In this document: positions 5,059 through 42,262 of the stretch, piece after piece | Numbering within the stretch: position 1 is the stretch's first letter | How the letters are laid out: the number at the start of each line of letters is the position of its first letter | Source: Planctomycetota bacterium | Lineage (GTDB): Bacteria > Planctomycetota > Phycisphaerae > UBA1845 | DNA: 64,000 bases | Direction of reading: 5' to 3' | NCBI GenBank assembly: GCA_024280855.1 | Contig: JAJRPG010000094.1 | Span: 19,321 to 83,320, forward strand | Made by a program: the position numbers and the translations under genes | Notes under the pieces: model-generated | Database searches by the model: none | Told to the model about the DNA's origin: nothing | The model's input: the letters and a program-made list of their open reading frames with translations, nothing else

Positions 5059-6162
5059 TTAGGATAAGTCCGCCACCGTCGGGGGGCTTGCGCGATACGG
5101 TCCTGACGGTGGTGGGGCCGGGGCTTGTGGAATGATCTTTTGCTTTCTTCCGACGATTAGCACGATTAGTAGTAAGAAGATTGCGCCAGCTCCCAGGCCT
5201 ATGTACCACGGCTGGTTGTAGATGCTGCATAGTACGTCGCTTACGCCCATAGCTGCGATGGCGGTTACTAAAGCGTAGGGAAGTTGGGTCCATACATGTT
5301 CTTCATGGCGACAGCCGGACGCGATGGATGAGAGGACCGTGGTGTCAGAGATGGGTGAGCAATGGTCTCCGAAAACTGCGCCAGCTAGGACGCTACCAAC
5401 AGCGGCGTAGAAGTATACCAGGGCTTGGTCGGTAGAGAGGTTGGGCGTTTGCTGAATCAAACCTGCGGCTATGACAACGGTTGCAGGACAAAGAATGCCC
5501 ATCGTTCCCCAGGATGAACCCGTTGAGAATGAGATAATCGCGGCTGTTATGAAGACGGTGAGTGAGAGCCAATGTATGGGGAAATTCATGTTTTGTAAGC
5601 GGCTTTTCATTACTTCACCTAGGGCTAAGTCCTGAAGCACCTGCGATAAGGACCACGCCAAAACAAGAATTACAATAGCAGGGAACATGCGGGCCATGCC
5701 GTCCAGGCCGGCGTCTGCGGCGTCTCTGGCACTGCAAGAACCAGCGACGATGGTTAGTATGATGGCGAAAAACGCTGATAAAATGGCACCGTAGAAAATC
5801 GAAAGGGATGAGTCCGCTTTGTTGATGACTTCGAATACTTGTTGCCGAATTGTCATATCATTTGTTATCGCGTCTGCTCCGCCACCGTTATATCCCGTGA
5901 TCCAGAGTACCGTCATGGTCGAGCCGACCAGCATAAGAATGGGGAACACGCCGAGCCACCAACGTGGCACTACTTTTTCGTCTGATGTTGAGGTCTGTGT
6001 GTCGTATGGCAAATCCTGCGTACCATCAGCCGCTTGTTGTTGAGCGCGTTTCATAGGTCCAAAATCTCGGCTTAGCAGTGCGACCAGGAATACCATGAAG
6101 AGCGCGAGGATGGGGTAGAAGCGATATTGCAAACTTCCCACGAATGCATTCATGCCGTTCAT
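5059..6162 (-). CDS. nhaC: NhaC-type Na+/H+ antiporter, C-terminal half (split by in-frame TAA)
   Basis: This is the downstream half of the transporter begun in 6166-7077. It opens with NAFVGSLQYRFYPILAL and continues through about seven hydrophobic segments, including FSTGSSWGTMGILCPATVV and AGAVFGDHCSPISDTTVLSS, which are hallmark motifs of the NhaC superfamily (the GDHxSPISDT loop lines the ion path). Only TAA-GTC separates the upstream frame from this ATG, and both halves are in one frame. Termination-reinitiation on TAAGTCATG could give two half-proteins. A nonsense mutation (CAA to TAA) of one gene is at least as likely. Sequence after the last segment is Pro-rich. Confidence 0.8.
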   Translation of the reverse strand: MNGMNAFVGSLQYRFYPILALFMVFLVALLSRDFGPMKRAQQQAADGTQDLPYDTQTSTSDEKVVPRWWLGVFPILMLVGSTMTVLWITGYNGGGADAITNDMTIRQQVFEVINKADSSLSIFYGAILSAFFAIILTIVAGSCSARDAADAGLDGMARMFPAIVILVLAWSLSQVLQDLALGEVMKSRLQNMNFPIHWLSLTVFITAAIISFSTGSSWGTMGILCPATVVIAAGLIQQTPNLSTDQALVYFYAAVGSVLAGAVFGDHCSPISDTTVLSSIASGCRHEEHVWTQLPYALVTAIAAMGVSDVLCSIYNQPWYIGLGAGAIFLLLIVLIVGRKQKIIPQAPAPPPSGPYRASPPTVADLS

Positions 6163-6165
6163 GAC

Positions 6166-7077
6166 TTACCCATCTGTGATGAGAAAGTCTGGTGTGCCTT
6201 GAATGGCGATGTCTTTGAGGCCATTATCGATAAAACTAATTTCAGCTCCGACCCAAGTGCCAATCAAGGCAAGCGACGCTACGGGAGCGGCTGTGGAATC
6301 TACGATGTAAGCTAGTTTTGCGCGGGAAATTTTTAAGCGATCGAATACGCCGCGCATGGTCGGGCCTACGATCATGGTGTTGGCGTAATCATCGAAGAAA
6401 ACTATAAGACCGGCAAACCAAGCCGTGAGTGCGCCGCGACGTGGTGAGTTGGTGTTTCCTGCTACAACGCTCACCATGCCTGCGGTGCCTCCGTTGCGGC
6501 CTAGTACGCCGACAGTAAAACCGATGACCACCGTAAAGATGATGATGTATAGATGCGCGTGATTATTTAAGGGGTCAATGATTGCGTTCATCACATATTG
6601 TTCGCAGGTTAATCGAAAGCCTGCGACGATAGAATTTTGCCCGACGTAAGGGCTAGTATTTGGTAAGCAGGGGATCATTAAATACGCGCCGGCGAGTAGG
6701 CCTACCACGAGGGCGGGTACAACTTGGCGAGAAATAATAGCCAGGAAAATAGCGATAATAGCCGGGGCGAGTACCCATAAGCCATAGAGCGTTTGAGGAC
6801 TTTTAGGTTGACGAACTGCCGTGGGGTTGTCAGCTAGAGGTTTAGCTTTAGCCACTGATTTATCAATTGTTGGTGTCGGCGTTGGAGCTTCATGGGCCGG
6901 GGGTTCTGCCGAAATTGCTACAGGTGGCTGTTGAGTCGTTGTGGTTGAGGGGCTGGGTTGGTTAGTTTGCTGTGCGAAGGCGTTTGTAGGGGTTGAGGTA
7001 AAAGCGATTAACGCGAATATGAATCCTACAGCAGGGCAGGATCGCCCGGCTAGTATTCCAGCAATACGTTTTTGCAC
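6166..7077 (-). CDS. nhaC: NhaC-type Na+/H+ antiporter, N-terminal half
   Basis: A signal-like N-terminus and a long Pro/Thr/Ala-rich spacer (to about residue 95) precede the first transporter helices (LYGLWVLAPAIIAIFLAIIS). The conserved NhaC core follows: NGGTAGMV, a SPRRGALTAW loop, then VFFDDYANTMIVGPTMR and AYIVDSTAAPVASLAL. The ORF stops at TAA 6168-6166 just after ITDG, in a region where relatives run straight on. The extracytoplasmic Pro-rich leader is longer than usual for the family. The predicted role is secondary sodium/proton exchange in the inner membrane, if the gene still makes a working protein. Confidence 0.8.
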   Translation of the reverse strand: MQKRIAGILAGRSCPAVGFIFALIAFTSTPTNAFAQQTNQPSPSTTTTQQPPVAISAEPPAHEAPTPTPTIDKSVAKAKPLADNPTAVRQPKSPQTLYGLWVLAPAIIAIFLAIISRQVVPALVVGLLAGAYLMIPCLPNTSPYVGQNSIVAGFRLTCEQYVMNAIIDPLNNHAHLYIIIFTVVIGFTVGVLGRNGGTAGMVSVVAGNTNSPRRGALTAWFAGLIVFFDDYANTMIVGPTMRGVFDRLKISRAKLAYIVDSTAAPVASLALIGTWVGAEISFIDNGLKDIAIQGTPDFLITDG

Positions 7078-28115: not shown

Positions 28116-29261
28116 CTATGTTCCAGTCGCCGCTGTGCGTGCCGAGGTTTGACGCCTGAGATTGACGCGGTCCTGGTCGGTGTGCGTAGGACGCAACTTG
28201 GATTCCACCCACACCAAATCATGAGCCGTTATTTTGACCTTGTCGCCATCGCTAAGACCTTGTTTTTTACGGGCTTTGCGGGCCGCGTTTTTCAATAGCG
28301 ACTTGCAGCGACGTAGCGATCCCTCGCCTATACGGTTGGCGACATCTTGTAGATACTTCACCGCATCGATCGATAGCTTGATTGGTGTACGGTCGTAAAG
28401 CTTTCGGATTTCCTCTACGCTGAACAACGGCTTACCGCCGGTGTAGACATCCTTGCCCTCGGTCAAATGGTGAATCACGTCGTATCGGCTATATAGCTGA
28501 CCATGATCGGGACCGATGGTGGCCACCAACCGATCGTGTAGATCGGCAGTGGCAAATAGCAACACAGGCACGCCGGTCGTATCGTGAATGTCGCGCAAGA
28601 ATTCTAACGCGGAGTCGTTTAGTTTTTGGGCCTCGTCGATTATCAACATGCGATCGCTATCAAGTAATCTATCCATGATGCGCTCGATGCGGGTCATGGA
28701 ACGATGCCCCGCAACTGTTGTGCCGAGCAAGTCAAGCTTTAGAGAAATCGCATGAGCCAATCCACGTGGATGGTGATAGCTATCTATGATGCGCACATAA
28801 ACCGATCCCACGTAATTATGATTGATGGCCTGGGCGCAGCGACTTTTACCAACGCCGGACGGTGCGAGCAACAACCCCATTGTCCTGTTTTCGTGAACCA
28901 ATCGAGCGGCGGCGAGTATGGCTTTGGCTACGCGGGTCTCGACATATTCTTCGTCGATGGACGCAGCCTTGGCACGGGCGTGCTGCTCGATCCGTGCGTT
29001 GAGTGTGCGAATGTATTTGTCGGCGTTCTCACGCCATTTGCGATCCATCAACTCGCGGATCGTGGTGTTGCCTGGCTTGCCAAGCTGCTTCGCCACATCT
29101 TTGGGTTGGATGTTGTTGCGATCAATATACTCGATGAAATTGTTCATCGCCAAGCATCGCTCTTGATCCGTCAATTCGCCGGTATTGGGCAGCGTCCATG
29201 CAGCCATGAGTATTTGATCCTTATCCTGTAGGATGTCTGTTAAGTTGTGTTGATCGGTCAT
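28116..29261 (-). CDS. MuB-like transposition target-selection ATPase
   Basis: AAA+ ATPase of 381 residues. An N-terminal HTH-like region (IQPKDVAKQLGKPGNTTIRE) matches the DNA-binding domain of Mu B. Walker A is LLAPSGVGKS, Walker B is RMLIIDEAQKL, and a sensor-like LLFATADLHDRL follows; the basic C-terminus (KNAARKARKKQG) resembles the B-protein DNA-binding tail. Mu B binds DNA with ATP, selects the target and activates the transposase. It directly follows the transposase gene (four-base overlap), the same A-B order as in Mu. Confidence 0.85.
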   Translation of the reverse strand: MTDQHNLTDILQDKDQILMAAWTLPNTGELTDQERCLAMNNFIEYIDRNNIQPKDVAKQLGKPGNTTIRELMDRKWRENADKYIRTLNARIEQHARAKAASIDEEYVETRVAKAILAAARLVHENRTMGLLLAPSGVGKSRCAQAINHNYVGSVYVRIIDSYHHPRGLAHAISLKLDLLGTTVAGHRSMTRIERIMDRLLDSDRMLIIDEAQKLNDSALEFLRDIHDTTGVPVLLFATADLHDRLVATIGPDHGQLYSRYDVIHHLTEGKDVYTGGKPLFSVEEIRKLYDRTPIKLSIDAVKYLQDVANRIGEGSLRRCKSLLKNAARKARKKQGLSDGDKVKITAHDLVWVESKLRPTHTDQDRVNLRRQTSARTAATGT

Positions 29262-31462
29262 AACAATGACGACAAGTCATCTGACAAGTCGTTGGCGTCA
29301 TCCGTAACCGTTTCCTCATTATCAACGAACAGGTCATCCATGCCCTGGTCTTCCTCGTGATGGTCCCAATTGGTTTCTGGCACTTCGTCTTCAAACAAAT
29401 CTTCCAAGTCGTCGGTGTCGATCGGGACGGGTTTGAACGCCGTTCGATCGGTTCTCGAAACGCTATCGACGCCAAGATGAACGGGCACGATGTTGACGAC
29501 ATTTTTATCGTCGGTGCCGGTTTTCATGACGTGCGTATGCTTCTCGTTGTGTATGTGCATGGCTTCCTGCTCGACGCTGCGAGACTGCGTGATACGATTA
29601 CGCTGCACCTTGTTGGCCTCCTTACGACTGCCCTGAACGCGACGCTGGGCCTCGCGTAAATCGTCTACATGCGTACCGGGCGGTAGCTGTTTGTTGGCCT
29701 CTAGCCGACCAAGCAGGCGGCGGGTTTCGATGTCCAGCACATGCACGTGTTCGCAATGCTCAACATCCAACGCGACCAGCACCTTGCGACCTTTTAAGCT
29801 CTTGAGACAAGCTGCATATTGACCGTACGTCACACTGACGCCTCCGGCTGTTATGGTCACACCGTTGGCCCCGACCTTATACGCCCCGCGCATGTCCATC
29901 ATTAAAAGTAACTGATCTTCGACGGCCTTACGCAATCGAGAGGCGGTGTGCCACACGGCCAGCGGGGCTTGATTATTTAGCCCGCTATGCTCGGTGCGGT
30001 GATAAGTGTCTATGTACTCGCATATGTGCTTACGGGCGTCGTCGAAGCTTGGCACGTTGGCGATGTCCTTACGCAACTCCTCTACATAGTCGGGCTTATA
30101 GTCTGATGATTTGCCGCAATAAGTGGCAAAATCCTTGTCGCACTGATCGTGCATCGTGCCGTACCAACGCTCCTGAATGCCCTTCGACCAAGGCGCGTAC
30201 GGTATGGCGTAGTGGACCTTAATGCCTAACTCTTCGTACAAACCTAGCCAGCGGGCGTCGTTGGCGTCGAGCAAGCCGTCGCTCTTTTTAGCCACCTTTT
30301 CCCAATCGTCACCGTGGGTACGTTTTAGCGCATCCATCTGACGCTTGGTGATACCCGCAAATAGCTTCGATCTAAAATCCTTGCCGTTATCGAGTTTGAT
30401 ATGCTCGCAAATAGCCCAATCCCGAAACGCCATACGCAGTGCCGACATGATGGCATCTTGATGGGGCGACTTACCCAAATGCCAGCCGACGACACAACGC
30501 GATCGGCAGTCCATAATGGTGGTGAGCCACGGGCGGATCGTTTTGCCACGATGTCTTACCCAATAGTCGCAGATGGTGTGATCGGCTACATACCATTCGC
30601 CTGGCTCTACCGTGGTCCAGTCGATGCTTATGAATGACATGTACTTTCGCTGCCAAGATTCTTTGCCCTCACGCATCAAACAGGTCAACGCCAGGTCATC
30701 ACTTTTCTTTAGCCAGAGCTGCGTTGATCGTGCCGACGTGGGCCAGGCCAGGTCGTGCTTTTCGGCGTCGCGCAAGGTGGCGTCGTGACAATACTTGATC
30801 GATCGCCGCTTTTGCGTGTGCCACAAGAAATAGAAGTGTTCGATCGACTCTTCACACCGGCCACTTTGTGGCTCGCTCCCTGACAATCCGTCGTCGCCAC
30901 CACCATCGCCGCTACCGTATTTGGGGATCAACGACTCGACGCCTGCGATGTGACCGCTGGTTGTCATGCGGTTGTAGTCTCGCCACCATGTTTGCAAGCT
31001 ACGCGGCGAAATCTTAAACGGAGCTGGCTCCGCATGTATGGCATCAGCGGAAACTTCGTAGGCGATTTTAATGGCCAAGTGGCCATCTCGATTAAACGAT
31101 AGCCGCTTACGCCATACATGCATCCAATGAGCCTTGCGATAGGCACGCTCGACGTGATGTTGCGGGTAGCTGTGGAGCAAGGACGCTTGGTCTCTGTCGT
31201 CGCGGGTGTTGTTGTTGGGGCAGGTCGATAACCTGGGATCGATGCGGCGATGTAACCACCAACAACACTTGCCCTTACCATTGCGTGGTGGCGCCTTGCG
31301 TGCCCTGCCCTGCTTTTGCAAGTAGCTATTGCACTGCCACGACAACGTGCGTGCGGCTACGCCCATGAGCGACGACGCCTCGTCTATGGGAACCCAGGCG
31401 TCGGCGGCTTTGATGTCGCTGCGCGAGCGAAACGAATCAGATTGTCTGATTGCTATAGCCAT
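29258..31462 (-). CDS. MuA-like DDE transposase
   Basis: 734 residues in the Mu A plan. The N-terminal winged-helix/HTH segment (DAWVPIDEASSLMGVAART) is followed by a HTH-containing middle and the catalytic core. The catalytic residues are visible as WYVADHTICDYWV (D1), IKLDNGKDF (D2) and WSKGIQERWYGTM (E), inside the RNase-H fold. The mu C-terminal beta-barrel and a long acidic tail come after (ETVTDDANDLSDDLSSLL), where Mu A contacts Mu B. The enzyme cuts and joins prophage ends for integration and replicative transposition. Confidence 0.9.
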   Translation of the reverse strand: MAIAIRQSDSFRSRSDIKAADAWVPIDEASSLMGVAARTLSWQCNSYLQKQGRARKAPPRNGKGKCCWWLHRRIDPRLSTCPNNNTRDDRDQASLLHSYPQHHVERAYRKAHWMHVWRKRLSFNRDGHLAIKIAYEVSADAIHAEPAPFKISPRSLQTWWRDYNRMTTSGHIAGVESLIPKYGSGDGGGDDGLSGSEPQSGRCEESIEHFYFLWHTQKRRSIKYCHDATLRDAEKHDLAWPTSARSTQLWLKKSDDLALTCLMREGKESWQRKYMSFISIDWTTVEPGEWYVADHTICDYWVRHRGKTIRPWLTTIMDCRSRCVVGWHLGKSPHQDAIMSALRMAFRDWAICEHIKLDNGKDFRSKLFAGITKRQMDALKRTHGDDWEKVAKKSDGLLDANDARWLGLYEELGIKVHYAIPYAPWSKGIQERWYGTMHDQCDKDFATYCGKSSDYKPDYVEELRKDIANVPSFDDARKHICEYIDTYHRTEHSGLNNQAPLAVWHTASRLRKAVEDQLLLMMDMRGAYKVGANGVTITAGGVSVTYGQYAACLKSLKGRKVLVALDVEHCEHVHVLDIETRRLLGRLEANKQLPPGTHVDDLREAQRRVQGSRKEANKVQRNRITQSRSVEQEAMHIHNEKHTHVMKTGTDDKNVVNIVPVHLGVDSVSRTDRTAFKPVPIDTDDLEDLFEDEVPETNWDHHEEDQGMDDLFVDNEETVTDDANDLSDDLSSLL

Positions 31463-33139: not shown

Positions 33140-33487
33140 ATGGAAAAAATAACGAAAGAACCGACTAAACCTTTGCAGTTAAGACTGCCAAGCTCTGTGT
33201 TTGATCGACTAGAGCAAAGATATCGTGCGAGCGGCGTAGACAAACAACTACAGGCGTTGGCCGGTATAATTGCAATTGAATCACTCGATCTTGCCCGTAG
33301 AAACGAGGCAATAAATTTTGCTACGCGGATTTCACTAGGCGAAATATCAATGGACGAGGTAGTTGATCTATATCAGATGAAAGACACGGGTCAGGGGTAT
33401 TCTGATGGATTGATTGATGCCCTAAGGCAACTAGAGCGGGATGCTGTACCCACAAAAACAAAGCGTCGGCGGGCATCAGGTCAATAA
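33140..33487 (+). CDS. Putative phage repressor, possibly ribbon-helix-helix type
   Basis: 115 residues from ATG 33140, divergent from the early operon, the position of a lysogeny repressor. The N-terminal PLQLRLPSSVFDRLEQRY segment has the strand-then-helix start of ribbon-helix-helix proteins; the rest is helical (DEVVDLYQMKDTGQGYSDGL). No Shine-Dalgarno sequence is present and the promoter-like TAATAT ends five bases before ATG, suggesting a leaderless message as for lambda cI from its maintenance promoter. Identification as repressor is by position. Confidence 0.45.
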   Translation: MEKITKEPTKPLQLRLPSSVFDRLEQRYRASGVDKQLQALAGIIAIESLDLARRNEAINFATRISLGEISMDEVVDLYQMKDTGQGYSDGLIDALRQLERDAVPTKTKRRRASGQ

Positions 33488-33665
33488 GTTTGTGAGCTTT
33501 TTCACGGGCTAAGACAATTTCGTCGCGTAGAGGTAGCGTTAGCCGATCCATCGGTTGCCTCCAGAATGGTGCGTGCTCGACGGGTGTCATCCATGACATC
33601 GCAATTCCTTGGCCACCGCCAAGCACAAAAGATGAGTTGCTGGCATGGCCACGACTGTAAGCCAT
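33321..33665 (-). CDS. Uncertain ORF overlapping the putative repressor
   Basis: A minus-strand frame of about 114 residues from ATG 33665 (MAYSRGHASNSSFVLGGGQG). Its first half fills an otherwise empty gap and has a plausible helix (LRDEIVLAREKAHKLIDLMP), but its second half lies antisense to the repressor gene. Only one of the two can be fully real in the overlap. I keep it as a low-confidence candidate because 33488-33769 has no other gene. Confidence 0.2.
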   Translation of the reverse strand: MAYSRGHASNSSFVLGGGQGIAMSWMTPVEHAPFWRQPMDRLTLPLRDEIVLAREKAHKLIDLMPADALFLWVQHPALVALGHQSIHQNTPDPCLSSDIDQLPRPLIFRLVKSA

Positions 33666-33769
33666 TGTTTGCAGTGTATGGGTTATGTTAGGGCAAGTCA
33701 AGCCGCAATATGTAGGGGATGGATTATGGGATTTTACTGCACCGAGTGTGACACCCGAGGGATAATGCG

Positions 33770-34672
33770 ATGACGAAACGTAACCGCAAACGCATTACCA
33801 ATGCTAAACCTTCTTGGTCGGAATTGAAGGAGCAATGCTATCAAAATTTTTCTCAACGAATTGCGGAACTCCACGATACAGAGCTAATCGTGATCCAAAA
33901 GACCGTCGTACAGATATTGTCAGGTATAGAGTCGGGAATGTACGTCAAGGACGTTTTCAATGTGCTTCAACAAATAGGGCCAATTGTTTCAAGGGGAAAT
34001 ATGTTGTTAGGTTGCCAATCAATTGTAAGGGATGTAGATCATTACAGGTCGAGAGTTGGAGCTGCGGATCGACCTATCGAACCTGATCCCGATATTGGCA
34101 ATACGTTTCCGTATCTGAGATATTACACGGTTGGGAACGGGACGCCCGGAACGAATATGGTCAAAGAATCACATGCTAAGCTGCATCGTATTATAGTTCA
34201 TCGTGATGACGAGTTTTGGAAATATCATACACCACCTTGGGAGGATGGCTGTAGATGTATGTGTTCCCCATTAACGAAAGGGCAAGTCGAGCGCGAAGGG
34301 TTGCCGGTACGAAATTTGGAGTATGTACGTAATGTGCTCGGTGTAGAAGTTGGCCCTGAGGAATTCCACCTTGGTAATATGGATATCGAATCATCAAGGA
34401 AGATTTTTAAGGCTAGATTTGAATGCGCCATATATAAAGCCATGTTGGCATATGTAGATAATCCACTCAAGCAGTTGTTGGACGGTGCTGTTAGTAGTGA
34501 GCAGACTCGACAAGTGTCGTGTGAGTCTGTGGATAGATGGAAGTCCTTAAATGCAGAATTGAAAACCACTGACAGCCCGGTCACTGCATTGGCAACAGCC
34601 GAAGACAAACTCACCACATGGAAAGAGCAGTTGGAATTTGTTGAAATGAGAATGTCAGAAAAAAAACTTTGA
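33770..34672 (+). CDS. Stand-alone MuF-domain protein, second copy in the prophage
   Basis: 300 residues. Residues about 110-180 match the MuF (Mu gpF, SPP1 gp7) domain of the true head gene at 41510-42262: YYTVGNGTPGTN against YSTVGNGVPGTN, a conserved His before HRIIV/HGKVF, then DEFWKYHTPPWEDGCRCMC against DPFWNTFTPPWDFGCRCTM. The N-terminal 100 and C-terminal 110 residues are unrelated. MuF domains in some phages are fused to toxin domains and are ejected with the capsid. The gene sits outside the head module, between repressor and late promoter, and is more AT-rich than the late genes, which points to separate acquisition. Confidence 0.65.
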   Translation: MTKRNRKRITNAKPSWSELKEQCYQNFSQRIAELHDTELIVIQKTVVQILSGIESGMYVKDVFNVLQQIGPIVSRGNMLLGCQSIVRDVDHYRSRVGAADRPIEPDPDIGNTFPYLRYYTVGNGTPGTNMVKESHAKLHRIIVHRDDEFWKYHTPPWEDGCRCMCSPLTKGQVEREGLPVRNLEYVRNVLGVEVGPEEFHLGNMDIESSRKIFKARFECAIYKAMLAYVDNPLKQLLDGAVSSEQTRQVSCESVDRWKSLNAELKTTDSPVTALATAEDKLTTWKEQLEFVEMRMSEKKL

Positions 34673-34727: not shown

Positions 34728-34987
34728 AGGGCGTCTGGACGCGCCCTGAAAAGCAACATACAAATCTTAAACCTAAAGCCTTAACGGCACGCACGGGCAC
34801 TGCGCCCGCAGCATGAAGCCGCTATCGCCTTACGGGCCATAACTGGCCTTCTAGGTTCTAACGATTGCCACAAAACTGGGTATCCCCGATGCACATCGGG
34901 TGGCCTGGTTATTTTTTTGTAGGCATCCCCCGGTGAGCATCGTGGATAAAACAAAACTGGATTCCGCTCCCGCATAAGGAATGAACT
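34728..34987 (+). other. Leader region with hairpins before the late genes
   Basis: Non-coding. An AGGGCGTC/GACGCGCCCT stem at 34728-34747, directly after the candidate promoter, and a CCCGATG/CATCGGG stem at about 34888-34904, followed after 12 bases by a T-run, could terminate or regulate readthrough. A degenerate copy of the ACTGGATTCC repeat occurs at 34955-34972. AAGGA at the end is the ribosome site of the 34988 gene. Nothing else was seen. Confidence 0.35.
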
Positions 34988-35485
34988 ATGACTGATCCGC
35001 AATATCAATTGCACTTGAAAGCGTTAGGGAAAATCGCTCGGCTATGGGACGACGGTGGACTCGATACGGCATCACTGAAGCTGCTCGCGTCAAGACTGTT
35101 CGATCAAATAGCTACGGGTGAAACGGTGTCATACGAAGGCGTTATTGTCGTTAGCACCTATGCCCCGAGTCTGAATAATGCCATCAATGGTGGCCAGAAT
35201 CCCGTGCGGTCAACGGCTCAAATAATGGCAGAACAATACCTGATACAAGTTCTTACCATCGACCTGACCACGCAACCAGTAGGCACGGACGCTAAGAGTG
35301 TTCTTGAGGCGTTACAAACTGAAATGAGCGTTGGCGTAGATGGGAAAACATTGACTGATAAATCTACCACAGGATTCGTGAACTTTTTCGATACGCTGTG
35401 GTCGCCATCCGGTACATGGAATACAGAAGCAGATGTAACCGCAGATTACAAGGATAGTATTTTTGTGGTTACGACCATCGTTTGA
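34988..35485 (+). CDS. Hypothetical phage protein
   Basis: 165 residues, no membrane segment. The N-terminal helix YQLHLKALGKIARLWDDGG and a Ser/Thr-rich beta-like C-terminal half (TGFVNFFDTLWSPSGTWNTE) suggest a small virion or assembly protein. ATG 34988 has AAGGA at proper distance. First gene after the candidate late promoter; followed by a palindromic repeat. Function unknown. Confidence 0.5.
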   Translation: MTDPQYQLHLKALGKIARLWDDGGLDTASLKLLASRLFDQIATGETVSYEGVIVVSTYAPSLNNAINGGQNPVRSTAQIMAEQYLIQVLTIDLTTQPVGTDAKSVLEALQTEMSVGVDGKTLTDKSTTGFVNFFDTLWSPSGTWNTEADVTADYKDSIFVVTTIV

Positions 35486-41509: not shown

Positions 41510-42262
41510 ATGCCCATCAACGTATTAGCCCAGCACGACTTCAAGCCCAAGACGCTGGACGATCTGGCCAAGCGGTTTCGGGGCAAGCTGGCCGTGGATT
41601 CGGATACGTTCGATCGGATCAGCCGCGAGCAAAAGGCCAAGGCGTTTCGCATTGCCACGGTTCACAAAGTGCAACTGGTGCAAAAGGCCCGCGACCTGGT
41701 AGCGGACGCCCTCGAAACGGGCACGCCATTTTCAGAGTTTCGAGCGAAGCTGCTCGCGCTGTTCGATCGCCAAGGCGTCGCACCTCCAGCACTGCATCGA
41801 TTGCAACTGGCGTTTCGGCAAAACCTTTTGCAGAGCTACAGCGACGCGCGGCGGGAAACACTGGACGATCCGGAAATCTCGTCGGTGTTTCGGTTCCGTC
41901 GTTATTCAACTGTCGGCAACGGTGTGCCAGGGACCAACCGGGTACGAGCCGATCACGCGATATTGCACGGCAAGGTGTTTCGATGGAACGACCCGTTCTG
42001 GAACACGTTCACGCCACCGTGGGACTTCGGATGCCGCTGCACTATGCAGGCGCTTACCGCAGGTCAAGTGCGACGCGGGCGTATGACTGTGTGGACACTC
42101 AAGGGCGGCGTGATTGTGCCAGCGGCCACGCGCAACGCCAAGGGCAAACAAAAAGGGATCAAGCTCAAACGCAATCCCAACTTCGTGGGCAGTGTGTTGG
42201 ATTTCGGGACGAAGTCGCTGGATAAAGATTTACGCGAACTGGTAGAGGAACTGACGAAATGA
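41510..42262 (+). CDS. MuF head morphogenesis protein (Mu gp30 / SPP1 gp7-like)
   Basis: 250 residues in the correct head-module place. An N-terminal helical region (FRIATVHKVQLVQKARDLVA) leads to the MuF core: RRYSTVGNGVPGTN, ADHAILHGKVFRWND, PFWNTFTPPWDFGCRCTM. A C-terminal basic loop ends in ELVEELTK. Minor capsid component needed for head assembly or ejected with DNA. The overlapping plus-strand ORF 41503-42225 is a shadow. Confidence 0.85.
   Translation: MPINVLAQHDFKPKTLDDLAKRFRGKLAVDSDTFDRISREQKAKAFRIATVHKVQLVQKARDLVADALETGTPFSEFRAKLLALFDRQGVAPPALHRLQLAFRQNLLQSYSDARRETLDDPEISSVFRFRRYSTVGNGVPGTNRVRADHAILHGKVFRWNDPFWNTFTPPWDFGCRCTMQALTAGQVRRGRMTVWTLKGGVIVPAATRNAKGKQKGIKLKRNPNFVGSVLDFGTKSLDKDLRELVEELTK

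What the first reader, a model, noticed from the sequence alone, without database searches (positions are those of the whole stretch)
33770..34672. Second MuF-domain protein outside the head module
The MuF core is shared with the true head gene (VGNGxPGTN, TPPWxxGCRC), but this copy has unrelated flanking domains and sits between the repressor and the late promoter, in AT-richer DNA. MuF domains are known carriers of toxin domains delivered by capsids. The C-terminal 110 residues could be such a cargo, or the protein could interfere with head assembly of competing phages. This is the most interesting candidate for an undescribed function here.
Basis: partly seen in the sequence, partly recalled or inferred. 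Interest (0 to 1): 0.7.

Follow-up and report, generated by a model that had tools for sequence, protein, structure and literature searches.

The report
Stray minor-capsid (MuF) gene in prophage
A dormant virus in a planctomycete bacterium carries, beside its control genes, an intact and strongly reshaped second copy of one of its own kind's head proteins, possibly used to jam the assembly of rival viruses rather than to build its own.

Summary
The ORF at 33770-34672 is real, intact and not chance. I call it MuF-b. It lies in a Mu-like prophage of a Phycisphaerae (Planctomycetota) genome and descends from the head MuF gene of that phage lineage: it shares a lineage-specific 5-residue insertion and 42-49% core identity. 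It is not a recent copy of this phage's own head gene; its nearest relatives are sibling-phage heads.

The N-terminal half is a remodelled homologue (15-17% identity). The last ~95 residues are a new, predicted helical extension without relatives.

The core is constrained (25/31 lineage-invariant residues kept); the N-terminal half is not (5/26, fewer than any other MuF tested). MuF-b sits in an accessory slot between the lysogeny regulator and the late genes, where it replaced a zinc-ribbon gene just after its start codon. Its downstream neighbour, ORF 34988, is also a head-type gene.

Toxin cargo is not supported. The best reading, inferred and untested, is a captured head protein made in the lysogen that interferes with head assembly of related phages or satellites. 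Rivals: accessory virion part, young relic. It is a singleton so far.

The parts
33770..34672 (+). MuF-b, second MuF-domain protein, 300 aa: residues 1-106 remodelled N-terminal helices, 107-190 MuF core, ~196-300 new helical extension
   Evidence: ORF; homology to head MuF; conservation; AlphaFold model
34088..34339 (+). MuF core (residues 107-190) of MuF-b
   Evidence: 25/31 lineage-invariant residues kept; pLDDT 81-94 in most blocks; 42-49% identity to heads
34355..34669 (+). C-terminal extension (residues 196-300), predicted all-helical, no relatives found
33572..33704 (.). Conserved control-region DNA upstream of the slot, shared with sibling prophages G027 and, in part, G013
   Evidence: local alignment, 0 of 1000 shuffles as good; MAFFT alignment
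33726..33773 (+). 15-codon leader ORF MGFYCTECDTRGIMR: probable relic of the start of the zinc-ribbon gene that occupies this slot in G027; its stop overlaps the MuF-b start (ATGA)
   Evidence: 23 nt after the conserved block, against 24 nt for the G027 gene; motif YCxEC[DE]T occurs once in six frames of the window
33140..33487 (+). Probable lysogeny regulator, divergent from the leftward MuA/MuB operon
   Evidence: position; similar segment in L021 protein fused to a Cro/CI-type HTH (E 7e-7); weak similarity to the G013 gene in the same place
34874..34918 (+). Terminator-like hairpin plus T-run between MuF-b and ORF 34988 (weak evidence)
   Evidence: z-score -1.15
34988..35485 (+). ORF 34988, 165 aa, head-module-type protein family; possible partner in the same cassette
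   Evidence: homologues beside capsid or protease genes in L179, L180, L185, L186
36104..36499 (+). Small lipoprotein-like gene; right border of the accessory slot, also present in G027 and L021 by position and type
41510..42262 (+). The prophage's own head MuF, between portal and protease
   Evidence: PF04233 52.8 bits, PHROG 220 E 2e-38

Best explanation
MuF-b is a minor head protein captured from a sibling Mu-like phage and put to a new use. Shown: it is a MuF homologue from this phage lineage with a constrained core, a reshaped N-terminal half and a new helical tail, and it stands in the accessory slot beside the lysogeny regulator, on the start signals of the gene it replaced. Inferred: it is made in the lysogen, apart from the late operon. 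Its core still recognises what MuF cores recognise at the portal vertex of a forming head, while the altered N-terminus and added helices make it a non-productive partner. It would act as a decoy that spoils or alters head assembly or DNA ejection of related incoming phages, or of the capsid-carrying transposable elements found in the same genus. ORF 34988, a second head-type gene beside it, may belong to the same cassette.
For: Constraint on the core only: 25/31 lineage-invariant residues kept, 5/26 in the N-terminal half, Fisher p 4e-6; other MuFs keep 9-18 of those 26. Descent from this phage lineage: shared 5-residue insertion, tree 98/86, E 7.6e-31; not its own recent copy, AU p 0.026. 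Slot beside the regulator with contents that vary between sibling phages; replacement of the zinc-ribbon gene just after its start. Neighbour ORF 34988 is a head-type gene 65% identical to one in a compact transposable element of a congener. Precedents: Ccm, a captured capsid-protein homologue that redirects helper capsids (PMC8569155); Tab, a prophage-made blocker of virion assembly (PMC10884400); SPP1 gp7 binds the portal and is carried into the procapsid (PMC6316719).
Against: No expression, binding or phenotype data. Only one example known, so selection on it cannot be measured directly. Codon usage departs from that of the phage core. The terminator that would set it apart from other genes is weak. 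No anti-factor protecting the phage from itself was identified.
Confidence: 0.38

Rival explanations
1. Accessory virion component: MuF-b is packaged in this phage's own heads next to the normal MuF, as a second internal or pilot-type protein, and helps infection of some hosts.
For: The MuF core, the part typical of virion MuFs, is well kept. SPP1 gp7 shows that MuF proteins can be accessory and still aid infection (PMC6316719). ORF 34988 next to it is also a head-type gene.
Against: The N-terminal half, kept in all other MuFs tested, is lost. The gene is away from the head module, next to the regulator. The head module already has its own MuF. Sibling phages do without it.
Confidence: 0.25
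2. Young relic: a head-gene fragment left by recombination with a sibling phage, still open but without function.
For: Singleton; very long branch; extension without homologues; atypical codon usage.
Against: Core constraint with loss only in the N-terminal half is not what neutral decay gives. The 300-codon frame is intact despite the long branch. The fusion to a resident gene's start with ATGA overlap looks like a usable expression context.
Confidence: 0.17
3. Other intracellular role in the lysogen, for example regulation or superinfection immunity that does not act on head assembly.
For: Position next to the regulator; replacement of a zinc-ribbon gene on the same start signals.
Against: No DNA-binding or enzymatic family found; the residues kept are those kept in virion MuFs.
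Confidence: 0.12
4. MuF polymorphic toxin: the MuF domain carries a C-terminal toxin into recipient cells inside the capsid.
For: Architecture of a MuF domain plus a C-terminal extension; many MuF extensions have no known domain (PMC5576092).
Against: No toxin family hit; low-confidence all-helical model. The next ORF is 165 aa, 315 bp away, and of head-gene type rather than immunity type. The gene is outside the head module, whereas the characterised MuF toxins Bxa and Apk2 are in it (PMC11699363).
Confidence: 0.08

Closest known systems
Head MuF proteins (Mu gpF/gp30, SPP1 gp7; PF04233, PHROG 220, TIGR01641)
   Same: Homologous core with the invariant W, P and CRC residues; co-linear over about 190 residues with the heads of the same phage lineage
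   Different: Not next to portal; N-terminal half strongly remodelled; about 95-residue helical extension; below the Pfam and NCBIfam cut-offs
MuF polymorphic toxins (Bxa, Apk2; PMC5576092, PMC11699363)
   Same: MuF domain followed by a C-terminal extension; encoded in a prophage
   Different: No toxin domain recognised, no small immunity-type ORF next to it, and not in the head module
Ccm of SaPIbov5 (PMC8569155)
   Same: Works-like comparison: a homologue of a phage head protein, diverged (24% identity for Ccm) with an altered N-terminal part, carried by a competing element
   Different: Ccm is a major capsid protein homologue of a satellite and acts on capsid size and shape; MuF-b is a minor head protein in a full prophage; its action is unproven
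Tab, the tail assembly blocker of phage JBD26 (PMC10884400)
   Same: Works-like comparison: an accessory gene of a Mu-like prophage proposed here to act on virion assembly of related phages
   Different: Tab targets the tail tape-measure protein, lies between the terminase genes and has an anti-Tab partner; no anti-factor is known for MuF-b

Membership tests
MuF superfamily (head MuF) | Homologous MuF core with conserved W, P and CRC residues | tested here: met
   E 7.6e-31 with a profile of sibling heads; W150, P155, C161, C163 invariant in 21 sequences
MuF superfamily (head MuF) | Score above curated family cut-offs | tested here: not met
   PF04233 22.1 bits against 29.6; TIGR01641 15.8 against 39.65; it matches only the C-terminal part of the Pfam model
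MuF superfamily (head MuF) | Gene immediately downstream of portal, in the head module | tested here: not met
   5.2 kb upstream of the portal gene; the head-module MuF is a separate gene. I therefore file it as a MuF homologue, not as a head MuF
MuF polymorphic toxin | C-terminal toxin domain | tested here: not met
   No Pfam, PHROG or NCBIfam hit beyond the MuF core; a toxin of an undescribed family cannot be excluded
MuF polymorphic toxin | Small ORF (<150 aa) immediately downstream as immunity gene | tested here: not met
   Next ORF on the strand is 165 aa, 315 bp away, and of head-gene type
MuF polymorphic toxin | Packaged in the capsid and delivered | not testable with these tools
   Needs virion proteomics
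Ccm-like captured head protein | Homologue of a head protein of the phage it acts on | tested here: met
   Homologue of sibling-phage head MuFs; that it acts on them is not shown
Ccm-like captured head protein | Incorporated into, or altering, target heads | not testable with these tools
   Needs procapsid reconstitution
Tab-like prophage assembly blocker | Expressed from the prophage independently of the late operon | tested here: inconclusive
   Own slot beside the regulator and a weak terminator-like hairpin; no expression data
Tab-like prophage assembly blocker | Counter-factor in the late operon that protects the phage itself | not tested
   No candidate was looked for systematically; divergence between MuF-b and its own head (42% core identity) could also give self-protection

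The most novel reading that the evidence does not exclude
A prophage has captured a rival's portal-vertex protein, kept its recognition core, reshaped the rest, and uses it from the lysogeny side as a dominant-negative inhibitor of rival head assembly or DNA ejection: a MuF-based anti-phage factor, possibly paired with a second captured head protein (ORF 34988).
Probability: 0.3. Interest if true: 0.75.

Novelty: new variant of a known kind. Interest (0 to 1): 0.45.

Why it matters
Defence that acts late, on virion assembly, is known from few cases, and a minor head protein turned into such a factor would be a new route to it. The case is testable: core, reshaped half and tail can be swapped against the head MuF of the same prophage. 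Even if the function proves different, this is a clear example of a head gene moved into a phage's accessory slot by replacing the resident gene just after its start codon.

Tried and rejected
Close relatives of MuF-b in IMG/VR and GTDB contigs by single-sequence scan: none. N- and C-terminal parts alone against phages: none. N- and C-terminal parts against all ORFs of the fetched loci: only themselves. PDB by sequence and by fold: no meaningful match. Recent duplication of the prophage's own head MuF: rejected (AU p 0.026). Origin from the MuF of the compact G015 cluster: disfavoured on the core (AU p 0.038), though the reduced full-length tree joins the two weakly (36/35). AT-richness as proof of recent import: rejected, since regulator genes of sibling phages show lower GC3 too. 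Rfam on the slot: nothing above threshold. ORF 34988 as an immunity gene: rejected, because its family lies after the major capsid gene in phages L185 and L186. ORF 34988 fold search: no useful match. PADLOC: none for MuF-b, ORF 34988 or the regulator.

Full report
WHAT IS THERE. The window is G000:C7:19321-83320 of a 4.56 Mb assembly. The closest hits with names are Phycisphaerae MAGs. Window ~22-63 kb holds a Mu-like prophage: MuB and MuA leftward (28116-31462), then regulators, then rightward terminase (38361), portal (39887), head MuF (41510), protease (42259) and major capsid (44514). The ORF 33770-34672 is an open 300-codon frame; 500 shuffles of the region gave no ORF that long. I call it MuF-b, to avoid confusion with the 'MuF2' domain (PF06152) of PMC5576092.

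HOMOLOGY. MuF-b matches the head MuF of its own prophage over 191 residues (E 2e-26), and a profile made only from head MuFs finds it at E 7.6e-31 over profile positions 20-206. So it is co-linear with a head MuF over its first ~190 residues. The core is 49% identical to the G032 heads and 42% to its own head. The N-terminal half is only 15-17% identical to the sibling heads, whereas those are 34-55% identical to the window's head there. N-terminal homology is weak but in register: 9 of 2718 shuffles score as high, and hhalign picks the same register (P 0.036). The last ~95 residues have no relative in any search. AlphaFold gives four N-terminal helices, a confident core (pLDDT 81-94 in most blocks) and three long low-confidence C-terminal helices. 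Fold search against viral models returns 'phage head morphogenesis' proteins, and nothing useful in the PDB.

ORIGIN. The core carries a five-residue insertion (VGNGTPGTN.V where other MuFs read, for example, VGDG.RVRP) that among the aligned sequences is shared only with this planctomycete phage group. In a 139-sequence tree MuF-b falls within that group (98/86) on the longest branch (2.29). The AU test on the core rejects sisterhood to its own head (p 0.026) and to the G015 cluster (p 0.038), but not to the G032 heads (p 0.30). The tool warns that long branches weaken such tests, and a reduced full-length tree leaves the exact place open. MuF-b was therefore probably captured from a sibling phage, or is an old duplicate; it is not a recent copy.

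SELECTION. Of 31 core residues invariant in the sibling heads MuF-b keeps 25, as many as the most similar outgroup head (L011) and more than every other (15-22). Of 26 N-terminal ones it keeps 5, fewer than any other MuF tested (9-18) (Fisher p 4e-6). Neutral decay would erode both; an unchanged virion role would keep both. This is the best evidence for a changed but real function. It rests on one sequence.

THE SLOT. In sibling phages the stretch between the regulator gene and the late genes is variable. L021 shows no such gene between the regulator and a lipoprotein-like gene. G027 has a zinc-ribbon membrane protein, and G013 a related-looking one plus a 213-aa ORF. The ~130 bp upstream of MuF-b (33572-33704) align with the DNA upstream of the G027 zinc-ribbon gene (0 of 1000 shuffles as good). 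A 15-codon ORF, MGFYCTECDTRGIMR, starts 23 nt after the block, against 24 nt for the zinc-ribbon gene in G027 (MSKNPVYCMECETAC). The motif YCxEC[DE]T occurs once in six frames of the window, here. Its stop overlaps the MuF-b start (ATGA). MuF-b thus appears to have replaced the zinc-ribbon gene just after its start and to use its signals. The regulator assignment rests on position and on L021, whose related protein (E 7e-7) has a Cro/CI-type HTH. A terminator-like hairpin follows MuF-b (34874-34918; z-score only -1.15).

THE NEIGHBOUR. ORF 34988 (165 aa) belongs to a small family that sits one to three genes after the major capsid gene in phages L185 and L186, and beside protease or capsid genes in compact elements of G001 (65% identity, same genus) and G017 (47%). 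The slot thus holds two head-type genes of different origin, while the head module itself is complete. This makes conflict between elements plausible but does not prove it.

RARITY. No second MuF-b was found in 114 genomes of the order, samples of 397 (class) and 392 (phylum) genomes, IMG/VR or 50,697 phage records. In the order only G000 has two MuF genes in one prophage; the two in G032 lie on separate contigs, each between portal and protease genes. PMC5576092 found portal or terminase genes near 85% of phage muf genes, so MuF genes elsewhere are not unheard of.

FUNCTION. SPP1 gp7 binds the portal and is carried into the procapsid; without it particles form but only about 25% are infectious (PMC6316719). 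A protein that keeps that core but has an altered N-terminus and added helices could compete at the portal vertex. Ccm (PMC8569155) and Tab (PMC10884400) show that captured head proteins, and prophage-made assembly blockers, exist. I give the decoy model 0.38, an accessory virion part 0.25, a relic 0.17, another intracellular role 0.12 and a toxin 0.08. Expression, portal binding and any phenotype are inference.

ASIDE. Following ORF 34988 led to a capsid-gene cluster conserved across the order (see Noticed in passing), which may deserve more attention than the finding itself. Its MCP homologues are in 90 of 114 genomes; terminase, portal, protease, decoration, MCP and connector genes stand in one order in most neighbourhoods read; within the genus dN is far below dS.

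Noticed in passing
G000:C24:16927-26561 (L235 4928-14562); same cluster in L239, L240, L241, L242, L244, L246, L247, L249, L250, L252, L253, partly in L237, L238, L248, L251, L254: Candidate gene-transfer-agent-like or otherwise domesticated phage-head cluster of about 10 kb: terminase, portal, protease, decoration, major capsid, connector and a few tail-like genes, one strand; no MuA, MuB or MuF found in the neighbourhoods by profile, integrase not searched for. A homologue of its capsid protein is in 90 of 114 genomes of the order (60 of 65 high-quality), mostly one copy, 52-60% identical over several families (about 35% in f4). Within the genus dN/dS is about 0.04-0.14 for capsid, decoration, portal, terminase and one more gene, and a flanking gene is shared by G000 and G001. 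No particle or DNA transfer is shown; one literature search found no such element described in this group.
   Followed up: partly
L179 4909-13652 (G001:C77), L243 9763-18311 (G017:C10), L236 3-11876 (G000:C62, same genome as the window): Compact elements with a capsid protein, decoration protein and protease related to the above cluster plus MuA/MuB transposition genes, without terminase found (portal only in L236): possible transposable capsid-carrying satellites or remnants.
   Followed up: partly
L011 8422-14892 (G015:C13): Cluster of capsid, protease, coiled-coil protein, MuF and decoration genes between host genes, without portal, terminase or transposase detected.
   Followed up: partly
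window 33321-33551 (-); L010 about 5894-6214 (-); L014 3394-3627 (+): Small antisense ORF overlapping the end of the regulator gene, with a similar start (M.[RQ]L.LPLR) in three sibling phages; could be a real leftward early gene.
   Followed up: no
L123, L143, L148, L156 (Verrucomicrobiota): MuF ORFs of about 1050-1100 aa in loci where the window's portal profile finds no portal gene: long extra parts that could be effector or portal fusions.
   Followed up: no
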